This document shows positions 26,587-37,146 of a stretch of DNA of 44,731 nt, piece by piece. This DNA comes from a virus. The stretch covers positions 1-44,731 of IMG/VR virus record IMGVR_UViG_3300007734_000697, one strand, 5' to 3'. Both the position numbers and the translations under genes were made by a program. The notes below the pieces were generated by a model, which was given only the letters and a program-made list of their open reading frames with translations, ran no database searches and was not told where the DNA came from. Position 1 is the stretch's first letter, and each line of letters starts with the position of its first letter.

Positions 26587-27399
26587 TTATTGTTTCTTCA
26601 TGAAATCAACGCCCATAAACATTGATGCCCCGCTTCCAACTACAGACGGTAATTTTCCATCCCATTTTTGAATAGCCCTTAATCGAATCATATTCTCTGA
26701 AATTTCTGTTTTTTGCAGCCTTAAGGATTCTGCTTCTGCTTTTGCTATTGAGATTTTTTGCTCTGATTCGATTTTAATTCGGGTAAGGTCTCTTTCTGCT
26801 TTTAAAGATTTTTGTACAGCAACGTTTTTAGATTCAACGGCTTTATTAAATTCTGGCGAAAAGTCAAAATCTACTATCGATACAGCATCGATGTCGATAC
26901 CATAAGAAATTAATCGATGAGATAAATCCTTTTTAATATGATCACTTACTATTGCTCGATTTGTAATTAATTCTTCTGCCGTGAATTTAGCAGTTACAGA
27001 CTTCATCGTTTCTTGTACTGCTGGGGCGACAATTCTTTCCTCAAGATTCTCTCTATTTAGAAAGTTTGTGTATATTTTATTTGCATATGATTTTTTAATC
27101 CCATAATTAAGGGCAATTGTAGCATGAATGCTTTGAAGGTCTTTTGAGGCCGCTTCCGATTTAGTATCTTCTCTAGAAATTCTAGTGTCTATCTTACGAA
27201 CGCTTTCAATTAATGGGATTTTAAAATGAAGTCCGCCATCAACTATTCTATTTACTTTTCCAAGCCTCACAATAACTCCAACTTCCCCTGGGGAAACTAT
27301 GAAAAAACTTCCTAATATCAACACTATTCCAATAAATATTGATAAGATCAGTTTCCATTTTTTTCCTAAAATTTCAAAAAAATCATTATTCTCGTCCAT
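26587..27399 (-). CDS. Prohibitin / SPFH (band 7) membrane protein
   Basis: 270 residues. A short cytoplasmic start is followed by a transmembrane helix at about 15-36 (LILSIFIGIVLILGSFFIV), then a band-7 domain (PGEVGVIVRLGKVNRIVDGG, IPLIESVRKIDTRI, DLQSIHATIALNY, VKKDLS-type helix and VSIVDFDFSPEFNKAVESK), and a charged coiled coil to about 240. Family members (prohibitins, HflK/HflC) form ring assemblies at membranes and restrain FtsH. In a recombination operon of a phage its task is not obvious. It is coupled to the ATPase gene by TAATG. Confidence 0.85.
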   Translation of the reverse strand: MDENNDFFEILGKKWKLILSIFIGIVLILGSFFIVSPGEVGVIVRLGKVNRIVDGGLHFKIPLIESVRKIDTRISREDTKSEAASKDLQSIHATIALNYGIKKSYANKIYTNFLNRENLEERIVAPAVQETMKSVTAKFTAEELITNRAIVSDHIKKDLSHRLISYGIDIDAVSIVDFDFSPEFNKAVESKNVAVQKSLKAERDLTRIKIESEQKISIAKAEAESLRLQKTEISENMIRLRAIQKWDGKLPSVVGSGASMFMGVDFMKKQ

Positions 27400-28622: not shown

Positions 28623-28970
28623 TTATCCGTTTCCGTTTCCGTCTCCGTTTCCGTATCCGCCTCCGTCTCCGCCTCCGTTTCCGTATCCGCCTCCGTTTCC
28701 GTATCCGCCTCCGTCTCCGTTTCCGTATCCGCCTCCGTCTCCGTTTCCGTCTCCGTTTCCGTATCCGTATCCGCCTCCGTCTCCGTTTCCGTATCCGTAT
28801 CCGCCTCCGTATCCGCCTCCGTTTCCGTTTCCGTATCCGTATCCGCCTCCGTATCCGCCTCCGTTTCCGTTTCCGTATCCGTTTCCGTTTCCGTCTCCGT
28901 TTCCGTTTCCGTATCCGCCTCCGTATCCGCCTCCGTCTCCGGTTTTTATTTCAATACCAAGATGGGACAT
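28623..28970 (-). CDS. Gly-X dipeptide array protein, 115 aa
   Basis: After a ten-residue head (MSHLGIEIKT) the whole protein is 52 Gly-X dipeptides, X being only Asn, Tyr, Gly or Asp. Every Gly is GGA and every X codon ends in C (AAC, TAC, GGC, GAC). AGGGAAAATACG before ATG 28970 serves as ribosome site. The TAA stop differs from the repeat's TAC by one base, as if the array were cut by a point change. A flexible or adhesive glycine-rich protein; the opposite frame is an Arg-rich shadow. Confidence 0.65.
   Translation of the reverse strand: MSHLGIEIKTGDGGGYGGGYGNGNGDGNGNGYGNGNGGGYGGGYGYGNGNGGGYGGGYGYGNGDGGGYGYGNGDGNGDGGGYGNGDGGGYGNGGGYGNGGGDGGGYGNGDGNGNG
28626..28940. repeat. Hexanucleotide coding array
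   Basis: On the plus strand the tract consists only of the 6-mers CCGTTT, CCGTAT, CCGCCT and CCGTCT in irregular order for 315 bases. Expansion and contraction by slippage is expected. Confidence 0.9.
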
Positions 28971-29437: not shown

Positions 29438-29701
29438 ATGGTCTTTATGTGTGGTGCGATGTGGACGGACACATTGTCTGATCCCATTAGAGATTACAAT
29501 GATGGTTATTGGGGCCGAAGAAATTCAATATCTACAGCCAGTATCAATCCTGGTCACTACACACAGATCTTTGAAGTTTTTATGAGTGGTTGGCCGAATG
29601 TAAAAAGGCTTTCTGAATTTATAGGGATGCAAATCGAGCATCAATATATGGACATTAGTCTAGAATATACCCATATATTACCCCCAATATTTTTGTATTA
29701 G
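29438..29701 (+). CDS. Doubtful ORF, 87 aa
   Basis: Open frame directly upstream of the tRNA, without a ribosome site and without recognised motifs. A shorter frame from ATG 29428 (MGYYGLYVWCDVDGHIV, then stop) overlaps it. The stretch could hold a decayed gene. Listed because nothing else explains these 260 bases. Confidence 0.3.
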   Translation: MVFMCGAMWTDTLSDPIRDYNDGYWGRRNSISTASINPGHYTQIFEVFMSGWPNVKRLSEFIGMQIEHQYMDISLEYTHILPPIFLY

Positions 29702-32582: not shown

Positions 32583-32789
32583 TCAAGACTCTGTTTCAAG
32601 CTCATTTTGGGGCGGTTTTTGTTTTATTTCAGATAAGAATTTGTATTTTCTCCTTATACTGGATCGCCAGCTATCTTTTTTGTCTTCTTCGGTTATGTAG
32701 CCAAACCAGGGGATTAAGAAATCCTTAATATCTTCAATAGTATTTATTTTTTCCCAATGGATATTAAATCTCGTGGTTTTATTTTTCAT
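32583..32789 (-). CDS. Hypothetical protein, 68 aa
   Basis: Overlaps the RNA ligase stop by ATGA, with AAGAGGAGAAACA before it. Charged soluble protein, Lys-rich at both ends. Not recognised. Confidence 0.65.
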   Translation of the reverse strand: MKNKTTRFNIHWEKINTIEDIKDFLIPWFGYITEEDKKDSWRSSIRRKYKFLSEIKQKPPQNELETES

Positions 32790-33781
32790 TGTTTCTCCTC
32801 TAATAAAAATTCATTGTTTATTACTTTGAAAGAATTATGGGGATCGATTATTGATCTAAATACTAGTCCTTCCCGCTTTGTAGGACACAGCTTACTATCA
32901 CCGATTGCCATTTCCAAAAGATCGGATAATTCTAGCTCTTGTCTCATAATGCTAGTCGCTATTCTGAATATGGGGACTGTCTCTAATTGTAAGATCTCTA
33001 TTAAATCATTGAATTCTCCTACAGATAAATAGCTTCCATCCGTAATAGAATAGGCATTAAAGAATAAGACTTTGTGGCCCTTTATATTGTATTTGTTTCC
33101 CTGAATTCCTTCGCCAATTAATTCGCCTTGAATAGCTATATTTTTGCCTAAATTTCTCAGTTTCTCCTCTATCTTAAGTTCTTTAGCAACTTTCCAAAAT
33201 GTATTTCCTTCACTTTCCAATAGCTCCATATTCCTGGAGCAAACCCCAAATGTATCATCGTTCAAATAGAATGTAGCACTTGATCCATCCAGCTTTTCAG
33301 TGACAAAATATAATTGCATTTTATCGATTTTATCGTAAATATTTTGTATTCTTTCTTCATCCGTTTTTGGTATAAAAGATGGGAAATTCCCTTTTTGTAT
33401 ACCGGATAAACATGCTGGGATAGGAGGATCGTATTTAAGGACGCCTAAAATATCGGTTACATCTTCCCCTTCTGGCAGATGCGATAGACAGTCTACGGGT
33501 AAAAGTAGTCCCTGGCTTAATTTACCACGCAATCTAATGGTTTTTAGTCTGAATCCTTCTAAATCTCCCATTTTCTTATAGGATGACTTTCTAAGAAATT
33601 CAAATTTAGGGTGAATAGGTAAAAAAGAGTCTATTTCAAAGTAAATAGCTAAGTCGTTAATTTTAAATTCTCCTTTTTTAACCACGACTTGCCAGTCATT
33701 TATATGGGCTAATTCGATAGAATCTGCTCCATAAATTGGAACGATATTTTTAACTCTTTGAATGCTTGCTAATTTTCTCAT
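32786..33781 (-). CDS. RNA ligase, DRB0094 (Rnl5-like) family
   Basis: 331 residues. The first ~110 form the N-terminal OB-like domain (MRKLASIQRVKNIVPI, GADSIELAHINDWQVVVKKG, LAIYFEIDSFLP). The ligase core follows: nucleotidyl-accepting Lys163 in KLDG (163-166), GVCSRN near 184, a GEL block with Glu as motif III-like, EGLVFRS as motif IV and FKVIN as motif V. Such enzymes seal broken RNA, in phages often tRNAs cut by host defence. A phage tRNA gene is 3 kb away. Confidence 0.85.
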   Translation of the reverse strand: MRKLASIQRVKNIVPIYGADSIELAHINDWQVVVKKGEFKINDLAIYFEIDSFLPIHPKFEFLRKSSYKKMGDLEGFRLKTIRLRGKLSQGLLLPVDCLSHLPEGEDVTDILGVLKYDPPIPACLSGIQKGNFPSFIPKTDEERIQNIYDKIDKMQLYFVTEKLDGSSATFYLNDDTFGVCSRNMELLESEGNTFWKVAKELKIEEKLRNLGKNIAIQGELIGEGIQGNKYNIKGHKVLFFNAYSITDGSYLSVGEFNDLIEILQLETVPIFRIATSIMRQELELSDLLEMAIGDSKLCPTKREGLVFRSIIDPHNSFKVINNEFLLEEKQ

Positions 33782-35167: not shown

Positions 35168-35533
35168 TTATTCCTCACTAGATCCGTCTGTATACGAAAA
35201 CGACCGATAAGTTTTTCTTTCCTGAATCCTTTGAGATGTCGCAATATTTGGCTCATCTGCATCTACAAGACCGGCAGAAAGGGTAAATTTGAATTCTAAT
35301 GCCCCTACGATAGATGAATAATCAGGCAGGACATCCTCGCGTAAATTCGCGCTCTTAGGGCTACGTCTTAATACCCTTTCTATTGGCATTGAGTTCATAA
35401 ATTCAAATTCATTAAAATTTGGATCGATGGAATCCAATTTCTGCTGAGGCCATGCTCCGAAGTCTTTTAAAGCCTGTATTGCTTCGGGGGTGTCGTAAAA
35501 ATCTTTAGTTTGTAGTGCTATTATCTTTTTCAT
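35168..35533 (-). CDS. Hypothetical protein, 121 aa
   Basis: Coupled to the Cys-array gene by ATGA. Soluble acidic protein (KDFYDTPEAIQALKDFGAW), with a Ser-rich end. Not recognised. Confidence 0.65.
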   Translation of the reverse strand: MKKIIALQTKDFYDTPEAIQALKDFGAWPQQKLDSIDPNFNEFEFMNSMPIERVLRRSPKSANLREDVLPDYSSIVGALEFKFTLSAGLVDADEPNIATSQRIQERKTYRSFSYTDGSSEE

Positions 35534-36315
35534 TTTTTTACCTTTTTAAGTGATTTTTCTTCAAGAGCACATCTTTTTATGTCTTCGAATGCGGTTTTAT
35601 TATCTGTGAAAAACTGATTTGGCCAATTAACTCTTATTTGTGAATTTTCTGCATAAATTTTAGCCGCTGCTATAGGCGTAGATAAAATTTTCTCTAGTTT
35701 TTTCCCGTTTTCACCGGCTAAAGTCACCACCCATCCAGCTCTACAATGCGTAGTCTCGCATTTGTGCCAGTCTGACATATCGAGTGCCCCTTCAATTGAT
35801 ACTGCTTCATATACTTTTTGATGAATATTTTTTATTTTAGGTATTTTTATTTCCTTTGCTTTGACACTGAGATTACTCAAACCATTGCAATTACCACAAT
35901 TACTCAAACCATTGCAATTACCGCAATAGCTGCAATTACTACAATTTCTACAATTACTTAAACCATTACAATCATTGCAACCCCTACAATCCCTGCATTC
36001 CCTGCAATAGCTGGAATCATAGCAATCACTGCAATTACTGCAATTACTTAAACCATTGCAGGCATTGCAGGCATAGCAAGTACTGCAATGCCTGCAATCA
36101 CTGCAAGCATAGCAATCATTGCAACCCTAGCAATCCTAGCAATCCCTGCATTCCCTGCAATGCCTGCAAGCATAGCAATCCCAGCAGCCCTTATTTGTTG
36201 TATTCATTTCTTCAAAATTAGGGTGATTTTTTGCGAATGCCTCACTTACTCCATTCTCTTCATCTTCTTCTCTTTCGATGAATTCGAAATAATTTTTATA
36301 TATTTTTGTTTTCAT
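35530..36315 (-). pseudogene. Cys-every-third-residue array protein with two in-frame amber codons
   Basis: ATG 36315 follows AAAGGAATCTAAATA and lies 3 bases after the upstream stop. Codons 1-43 form a charged head (MKTKIYKNYFEFIEREEDEE). Codons 44-143 are 34 slots of C-x-y with Cys in 30 and Leu or Ser in four. Codons 144-261 form the domain with MSDWHKCETTHCRAGWVVTL. TAG occurs at codons 60 and 63 (36136-36138, 36127-36129). Without readthrough only a 59-residue head is made; a TTG at 35907 could restart the C-terminal part (125 aa). TAG is a normal stop elsewhere here. Confidence 0.7.
35887..36186. repeat. 9-bp coding repeat array (Cys-x-y)
   Basis: About 34 units of nine bases, each TGC or TGT plus two variable codons, in the same frame over 300 bases. 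Unlike the other two coding arrays it also varies at silent positions (TGC/TGT). A secondary motif NGLSNC recurs three times. Confidence 0.85.
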
Positions 36316-36318
36316 TAT

Positions 36319-37026
36319 TTAGATTCCTTTTTTTTCTAATTCCAATTTGGATTTTTTGTCTTTTTCAATTATTTTGAACCAGTCAAAAACTAATAGGGCG
36401 GCTTTATATGCTAATTCTAGTTGTGCGTAGTTTTTAGAATTAGGATCTAGATTTATTTTGTTTTTATTTTTGAAAAATTTCTTCCAGTCCTCTTTTGATT
36501 TTTCTACGCACCCTATTTTTATATTTCCGGATCTTAAAACTAACACTCTATAGCACGCTCCAAACGAAAATTGCTTCGATCCCACATCCTGGTAGCCACG
36601 CACATCCTGGTTGCCACCCACATCCTGGTAGCCACGCACATCCTGGTAGCCACCCACATACTGGTTGCCACCCACATGCTGGTAGCCACCCACATGCTGG
36701 TAGCCACCCACATCCTGGTAGCCACGCACATCCTGGTAGCCACGCACATCCTGGTTGCCACCCACATCCTGGTAGCCACGCACATGCTGGTAGCCACCCA
36801 CATACTGGTAGCCACGCACATCCTGGTAGCCACCCACATACTGGTAGCCACGCACATACTGGTAGCCACGCACATCCTGGTTGCCACCCACAATGATTGA
36901 AAATTCAGAGTAAATTTCTTCGCAATCCAAATTGCCAGATATTTCTATATCGCATTCAAATATAATTTTGCCATCAAAACTTAAATCCCCTTCTATCTTT
37001 TTATCTTTTATTCTTAATTCCTTCAT
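36319..37026 (-). CDS. Hexapeptide-array beta-solenoid protein, 235 aa
   Basis: AAAAGGAGCATAAAAA precedes the ATG. The first 47 residues already look like solenoid rungs (IEGDLSFDGKIIFE, ISGNLDCEEI). Then come 17 units of G-[NY]-Q-[DYH]-V-[RG] and a non-repeat tail of 85 residues with charged helices. Each unit could be one strand and turn of a beta-helix like bactofilins or hexapeptide proteins. All variation lies at three positions and changes the residue. The role is unknown; a binding surface or polymer is plausible. Confidence 0.75.
   Translation of the reverse strand: MKELRIKDKKIEGDLSFDGKIIFECDIEISGNLDCEEIYSEFSIIVGGNQDVRGYQYVRGYQYVGGYQDVRGYQYVGGYQHVRGYQDVGGNQDVRGYQDVRGYQDVGGYQHVGGYQHVGGNQYVGGYQDVRGYQDVGGNQDVRGYQDVGSKQFSFGACYRVLVLRSGNIKIGCVEKSKEDWKKFFKNKNKINLDPNSKNYAQLELAYKAALLVFDWFKIIEKDKKSKLELEKKGI
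36580..36885. repeat. 18-bp coding tandem array, 17 units
   Basis: Seventeen perfect-length 18-bp units. On the coding strand each is GGC-(A/T)AC-CAG-(G/T/C)AT-GTG-(C/G)GT; no other base varies. The repeat has no stop in five or more frames, which produces long false frames on both strands. Confidence 0.92.
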
Positions 37027-37029
37027 TTT

Positions 37030-37146
37030 TTATGCTCCTTTTTTAAATACGGTTGCGCATTGCACGGGTTGATTTTTTAATACTTCTTTCATTATTTTTT
37101 TGAGGGCTATTTTGGACGGTGATTTTAATGAAATTATTTTAAACAA
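37030..37146 (-). CDS. Small basic protein, 38 aa (uncertain start)
   Basis: A frame from TTG 37146, overlapping the previous gene's end, encodes LFKIISLKSPSKIALKKI and ends in FKKGA; ATG 37092 is an alternative giving 20 residues. Neither has a strong ribosome site. It fills the gap before the hexapeptide gene. Confidence 0.35.
   Translation of the reverse strand: MFKIISLKSPSKIALKKIMKEVLKNQPVQCATVFKKGA

What the first reader, a model, noticed from the sequence alone, without database searches (positions are those of the whole stretch)
36319..37026. Seventeen-unit hexapeptide array with three variable sites and no silent change
Each 18-bp unit keeps 15 bases constant and varies only at the first base of three codons: Asn/Tyr, Asp/Tyr/His and Arg/Gly. 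Asn (A) never occurs at the D/Y/H site. Over 17 units no synonymous difference is present. It looks like a modular beta-solenoid whose outward face is diversified, perhaps a binding surface for variable partners, generated by unit shuffling and not by a reverse-transcriptase system (none seen).
Basis: partly seen in the sequence, partly recalled or inferred. Interest (0 to 1): 0.75.

Follow-up and report, generated by a model that had tools for sequence, protein, structure and literature searches.

The report
Phage protein with shuffled, diversified repeat array
A phage gene encodes a stacked, spring-shaped protein built from 17 near-identical six-residue units in which only the outward-pointing residues differ; hundreds of phages carry arrays made on the same principle, and the array changes while the rest of the gene stays the same, which suggests a surface that phages keep re-shuffling without the reverse transcriptase used by the best-known phage diversifiers.

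Summary
In detail: 17 exact 18-bp units at 36586-36891 (minus strand) inside gene 36319-37026, 15 constant columns, three variable ones, no silent change. On its own this is weak, because only about four changes are needed. Pooled over relatives it is strong. The hexapeptide V-x-G-x-Q-x array occurs in other phages with different codons. The same design recurs as Cys-x-x and pentapeptide arrays, the former also in the gene next door. Changes at presumed outward residues exceed silent changes 243 to 13, and inward residues hardly change (1). Different amino acids at one site nearly always share the third base. Isolates with identical gene flanks differ only in the array: Caulobacter phages have 21, 23 or 28 units. 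No reverse transcriptase was found in 12 records. Array silent positions are G+C-rich against their own loci, which suggests recombination. AlphaFold2 gives a right-handed beta-solenoid of moderate confidence. Best reading: an intracellular accessory scaffold whose outward face is diversified by unit duplication, deletion and conversion under selection, carried by a constant C-terminal domain. The partner is unknown and the binding role is inferred. 'First base only' does not hold in all relatives, and several array lengths rest on short-read assemblies.

The parts
36319..37026 (-). Gene of the hexapeptide-array protein, 235 aa
   Evidence: ORF with ribosome-binding site; homologues with the same layout in other records
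37035..37040 (-). Shine-Dalgarno AAGGAG
   Evidence: sequence read
36892..37026 (-). Constant N-terminal solenoid rungs, residues 1-45
   Evidence: AlphaFold2 pLDDT 91-95 for residues 1-50, strands in register with the array
36586..36891 (-). Array: 17 exact 18-bp units V-[RG]-G-[NY]-Q-[DYH]
36319..36585 (-). Constant C-terminal domain (residues 148-235, motif IKIGC-x7-W), shared with pentapeptide-array proteins
   Evidence: hhalign probability 94%, E 1.2e-7 against the C-termini of Acinetobacter, Caulobacter and Rheinheimera phage pentapeptide proteins
35530..36315 (-). Neighbouring gene of the same design: Cys-x-x array plus WHxCETTHCRAGW domain (phrog_31265); interrupted by two in-frame TAG
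   Evidence: intact counterpart L008:3838-4578 close to the hexapeptide gene
36127..36138 (-). The two in-frame TAG codons of the neighbour gene (36136-36138 and 36127-36129)
   Evidence: codon listing; TAG ends nine other genes here, so recoding is unlikely
28623..28970 (-). Third array: (Gly-x)n, every array Gly GGA, x = N/Y/G/D as AAC/TAC/GGC/GAC
   Evidence: codon listing

Best explanation
A non-virion accessory protein of the phage: a right-handed beta-solenoid made of tandem hexapeptides, with V, G and Q pointing inward and held constant and the alternate residues pointing outward and diversified, followed by a constant C-terminal domain. Diversity comes from gain, loss and conversion of near-identical units by recombination or replication slippage. 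That process keeps the DNA backbone of the array uniform, while selection favours new outward residues. Shown: the array, its family, the excess of outward changes, uniform backbone within and codon turnover between lineages, array polymorphism at identical flanks, no reverse transcriptase. Predicted: the fold. Inferred: recombination as the motor, intracellular location, and a role as an adaptable binding surface for a variable host or rival-phage target, with the C-terminal domain as constant handle or effector.
For: Within-array silent heterozygosity 0-0.10 against 0.05-0.76 between arrays; amino-acid heterozygosity mostly 0.3-0.8 at outward sites. Minimum events over 64 arrays: outward nonsynonymous 243, silent 13, inward nonsynonymous 1; omega 20, 5.6 and 32 for hexa-, tri- and pentapeptide arrays, P 1e-6 to 2e-12. 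Different residues at one site share the third base in 68/68, 36/36, 37/41 and 281/319 comparisons. Identical flanks, different arrays: Acinetobacter 21-35 units, Caulobacter 21/23/28, Rheinheimera 14-26; HGAP4 (a long-read assembler) is the method given for the Caulobacter phages, and a 375-bp (25-unit) deletion between RW and GB2A is published (PMC11053796). No RVT_1 in 12 records. Array GC3 above amino-acid-matched expectation in 12/12, 42/46 and 20/21 arrays, as biased conversion would give. Model: strands every six residues, pLDDT 73.5; bactofilin 6rib Z 11.0, rmsd 2.3 A; tapirin 4wa0 Z 14.7, 2.1 A. Location among small minus-strand genes (HTH, YopX-like), away from the plus-strand structural genes.
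Against: No partner, phenotype or expression datum. Model confidence falls to about 50-80 within the array. Repeated blocks exceed shuffles in only 15 of 84 arrays, so simple duplication leaves a weaker trace than expected; conversion or repeated shuffling must be assumed. The GC3 shift could also come from GC-rich donors or from constraint on the DNA. Rheinheimera lengths come from 125-bp reads. Most metagenomic and some isolate arrays may be collapsed.
Confidence: 0.62

Rival explanations
1. Neutral satellite: the array expands and contracts by slippage, the three variable sites are merely tolerant, and there is no selection for diversity.
For: Array length clearly drifts; for the focal array alone 4 nonsynonymous and 0 silent changes are compatible with neutrality at outward sites (P about 0.17, site counts).
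Against: Pooled, silent changes are depleted 6- to 32-fold against outward changes; neutral homogenisation would treat both alike.
Confidence: 0.13
2. Targeted hypermutation, DGR-like or of another enzyme, rewrites only the variable bases on a fixed template.
For: Constant third bases under changing first and second bases; near-random unit order with weak serial correlation.
Against: No RVT_1 in 12 records; no second template-like copy in the window; in this array adenines at second codon positions do not vary; the variable base can be first, second or third in the family; unit number changes too, and same-length siblings differ by substituting unit types already in the array.
Confidence: 0.08
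3. The DNA array, not the protein, is functional (binding, packaging or recombination site).
For: Silent positions are G+C-rich against the locus; L012 and L021 share all 9 array codons though 48% of flanking silent codons differ.
Against: The same peptide is written with different codons in other phages (window against L008: 6 of 9 array codons differ); alternation of constant and variable residues is a protein pattern; changes fall on nonsynonymous bases of whatever codon position.
Confidence: 0.07
4. Diversity only prevents mis-stacking or aggregation of identical rungs; there is no variable partner.
For: Identical neighbouring repeats are prone to mis-register in general (own knowledge).
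Against: No avoidance of identical or like-charged residues at the expected stacking distance: hexapeptide lag 3 z about 0 to -0.7 for identity, pentapeptide lag 4 slightly positive.
Confidence: 0.1

Closest known systems
Pentapeptide-repeat proteins (PF00805), including phage proteins with DUF5758
   Same: Short in-frame units, solenoid with inward A and L constant and outward residues free; phage members in this study carry arrays of the same evolutionary behaviour and a C-terminal domain related to that of the focal protein.
   Different: Hexapeptide V-x-G-x-Q-x unit with no Pfam match to any repeat family; the studied pentapeptide proteins MfpA and Qnr are gyrase-binding DNA mimics (own knowledge), which nothing here supports for this protein.
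Bactofilins and other right-handed six-residue-strand beta-helices
   Same: Predicted fold: bactofilin 6rib Z 11.0, rmsd 2.3 A over 99 residues.
   Different: No sequence match by Pfam or to PDB sequences; exact DNA repeats with diversified outward sites.
Diversity-generating retroelements
   Same: Constant backbone with variation confined to chosen codons; works as a diversifier.
   Different: No reverse transcriptase or template repeat found; unit number and order change.
TAL-effector repeat arrays
   Same: Near-identical DNA repeats in which only specific residues vary and arrays change by recombination (own knowledge).
   Different: 34-residue helical repeats reading DNA; here a six-residue beta unit, so no sequence or fold relation is expected (not tested).

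Membership tests
Diversity-generating retroelement | Reverse transcriptase gene | tested here: not met
   PF00078 in 0 of 12 records, some of them possibly fragments; controls rang
Diversity-generating retroelement | Template repeat elsewhere in the genome | tested here: not met
   only one other match, with 2 mismatches over 18 bp, at 29547-29564
Diversity-generating retroelement | Adenine-specific variation | tested here: not met
   A at second position of NAC/NAT does not vary in this array; C/G, G/T and T/A sites vary in the family
Pentapeptide-repeat protein (PF00805) | Match to the repeat model | tested here: not met
   no Pfam repeat family for P0001 at E 0.1; the relatives with pentapeptide arrays do match
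Bactofilin | Bactofilin domain by sequence | tested here: not met
   no Pfam match, no PDB sequence match
Bactofilin | Right-handed triangular beta-helix, six residues per side | tested here: inconclusive
   Z 11.0 and rmsd 2.3 A to 6rib, but model pLDDT 73.5 and lower in the array
Hexapeptide (left-handed) acyltransferases | Left-handed beta-helix | tested here: inconclusive
   Z 13-15 but rmsd about 12 A, against 2-3 A for right-handed helices; handedness itself not read from coordinates
Phage variable-array class described here (array plus constant C-terminal domain) | Uniform codon backbone within an array with outward nonsynonymous variation | tested here: met
Phage variable-array class described here (array plus constant C-terminal domain) | C-terminal domain shared with other array types | tested here: met
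   hhalign probability 94%, E 1.2e-7

The most novel reading that the evidence does not exclude
Phages possess a widespread reverse-transcriptase-free diversification system: exchangeable solenoid arrays of several chemistries (V-x-G-x-Q-x, C-x-x, pentapeptide, perhaps G-x) on shared C-terminal domains, kept uniform by recombination and diversified on the outside, acting inside the cell as evolvable binders in conflict with host defences or rival phages.
Probability: 0.3. Interest if true: 0.86.

Novelty: new variant of a known kind. Interest (0 to 1): 0.63.

Why it matters
Phage diversification is mostly discussed for tail fibres and DGRs. Here a common class of accessory genes, annotated as hypothetical or 'pentapeptide', shows strong diversification of presumed surface residues and array change between phages that are otherwise almost identical. 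The Caulobacter phages JessA and RapA, which have nearly identical genomes and grow on a laboratory strain, make both the rate and the function directly testable. One report noticed a 375-bp deletion in such a gene (PMC11053796), but no paper found here describes the pattern.

Tried and rejected
tblastn of the whole protein against phages found nothing, probably because repeats are masked. A claim that array silent sites evolve more slowly than flanks was examined: true for some pairs (L012/L021 0 of 9, L041/L044) but not in general (window/L008 6 of 9, L062/L081), so not claimed. Charge- or identity-avoidance between stacked rungs: no signal. TAG recoding for the broken neighbour: rejected, TAG ends nine genes and there is no suppressor tRNA. 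The Cys-x-x array gave no confident fold (pLDDT about 30) and no PDB match. Related terminases (20 loci) gave no close sibling, and the 15 of their records searched, many of them fragments, lack the hexapeptide gene. Literature searches found no description of the pattern; the Barba papers do not mention the pentapeptide genes.

Full report
OBSERVATION. The array is real and exact. In gene 36319-37026 (minus strand, 235 aa) 17 units of 18 bp occupy 36586-36891; 15 columns are constant and columns 4, 10 and 16 vary, giving V-[R/G]-G-[N/Y]-Q-[D/Y/H], with 6 of 12 combinations used. The gene has an AAGGAG shortly before its ATG. The units are not independent: about four base changes are needed, so the absence of silent change in this one array has P about 0.17 if outward sites are free to change (sites).

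FAMILY. Pattern and protein searches found the same hexapeptide with recognisable flanks in L008, L011, L012, L013, L017, L019 and in contigs binned as Chitinophagaceae (L021) and Patescibacteria (L025). Each array uses nearly one codon per position, but the codons differ between phages (GTG, GTT or GTC; GGC or GGG; NAC or NAT). The conserved thing is the peptide. Relatives show Arg/Ser as AGG/AGT and Val/Glu as GTA/GAA, so 'first base only' is a property of this array and not of the family.

A WIDER CLASS. The next gene (35530-36315) carries a Cys-x-x array and a domain WHxCETTHCRAGW (phrog_31265). A scan found 166 relatives of that domain in IMG/VR (80 kept); it follows either Cys-x-x arrays (46 of the loci examined) or pentapeptide arrays (25). 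The focal C-terminal domain (IKIGC-x7-W) is likewise shared with pentapeptide-array proteins of Acinetobacter, Caulobacter and Rheinheimera phages (hhalign probability 94%, E 1.2e-7). So different array chemistries sit on shared C-terminal domains. In this window the Cys-x-x gene is interrupted by two in-frame TAG codons; TAG ends nine other genes, so recoding is unlikely. In L008 both genes are intact and close together. A third array of Gly-x dipeptides lies at 28623-28970, again with an invariant GGA.

SELECTION AND HOMOGENISATION. Silent heterozygosity within arrays is 0-0.10, against 0.05-0.76 between arrays. Counting minimum events over 64 arrays, outward nonsynonymous changes are 243, silent 13 and inward nonsynonymous 1; omega at outward sites is 20 (hexa), 5.6 (tri) and 32 (penta), with binomial P from 1e-6 to 2e-12. 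Some arrays are related, so these P values are optimistic. At a variable site, different amino acids share the third base in 68/68, 36/36, 37/41 and 281/319 comparisons. Old balanced alleles would have diverged there, so variants probably arise repeatedly on a young uniform background. As an illustration of an ordinary protein repeat, VWGDQI units of a bacterial peptidase show silent changes and no amino-acid change (L022).

TURNOVER. L013 and L017 are 100% and 99.7% identical over 600 bp on either side, but have 23 and 12 hexapeptide units; their pentapeptide arrays have equal length and differ in two units, each replaced by a unit type already present. L095 and L096 have an identical C-terminal domain and arrays no more alike than shuffled ones. 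Cultured isolates with 0 or 1 differences in the gene flanks have 21, 21, 23, 26, 28 and 35 units (Acinetobacter), 21, 23 and 28 (Caulobacter JessA, BL94, RapA) and 14 to 26 (Rheinheimera Barba). Pairs at about 99.9% identity often keep the same array (L106-L108, and four of the Barba isolates), so turnover is fast but not per generation. Assembly is a caveat: Barba genomes are 125-bp-read assemblies, whereas PMC11053796, which reports the Caulobacter genomes, gives HGAP4, a long-read assembler, as its method (JessA itself was published earlier). That paper calls JessA and RapA nearly identical and reports a 375-bp deletion, 25 units, in the pentapeptide gene of GB2A against RW.

MECHANISM. 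No RVT_1 in 12 records and no second template-like copy in the window argue against a DGR. Whole-unit changes and replacement by existing units point to recombination or slippage. Repeated blocks exceed shuffles in 15 of 84 arrays, strongly in L013, L040 and L046. Elsewhere order is close to random, which needs many rounds of shuffling or conversion. A new clue: third positions in arrays are G+C-rich against an amino-acid-matched expectation from the same locus in 12/12, 42/46 and 20/21 arrays (window 0.67 against 0.27). GC-biased conversion would do this; GC-rich donors or constraint on the DNA could too.

STRUCTURE. AlphaFold2 from a 9-sequence alignment gives a solenoid with a strand every six residues; pLDDT is above 90 for the N-terminal rungs and falls along the array (mean 73.5). 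VIA-align fits it at 2-3 A to right-handed helices (tapirin 4wa0, bactofilin 6rib) and at about 12 A to left-handed acyltransferases, so right-handed is likely. Alternation then puts V, G and Q inward and the variable residues outward, as in pentapeptide repeats, where A and L point inward (own knowledge). The side-chain directions were not read from coordinates.

FUNCTION. The gene lies among small minus-strand genes with HTH and YopX-like proteins, apart from the plus-strand structural and lysis genes; in Caulobacter phages its counterpart follows DNA polymerase I. This favours an intracellular, non-virion role. The gene is patchy: phages with related terminases lack it in the (partial) records held, and the window's terminase was not found in five phages that carry the hexapeptide gene, which fits an exchangeable accessory module. 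A variable outside on a constant handle is best explained as an adaptable binding surface against a changing target; this step is inference. Stacking avoidance and a neutral satellite explain the data less well.

Noticed in passing
28623-28970 (-): Gly-x dipeptide array in which every array glycine is GGA and x is N, Y, G or D as AAC, TAC, GGC or GAC: the same constant/variable principle in a third gene, beside a DUF6948 gene.
   Followed up: partly
35530-36315 (-): Cys-x-x array gene broken by two in-frame TAG codons within the array; it also shows silent changes (TGC/TGT, AGT/AGC) that its intact neighbour lacks.
   Followed up: partly
36586-36891 and arrays in other loci: Array third positions are much richer in G+C than the rest of the locus in 74 of 79 arrays; cause not settled.
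   Followed up: partly
L131 (Rheinheimera phage Barba29S): The deposited genome has N exactly at variable bases of its pentapeptide array, which may mean mixed arrays within one isolate or unresolved short-read assembly.
   Followed up: no
L009 and L016: Several adjacent V-x-G-x-Q-x array genes in one phage, with higher silent variation than most single-copy arrays.
   Followed up: partly
26587-27399 (-): Phage-encoded SPFH/Band 7 (prohibitin-like) protein, Pfam E 9e-36.
   Followed up: no
32786-33781 (-): RNA ligase with PHA02142 OB-fold domain.
   Followed up: no
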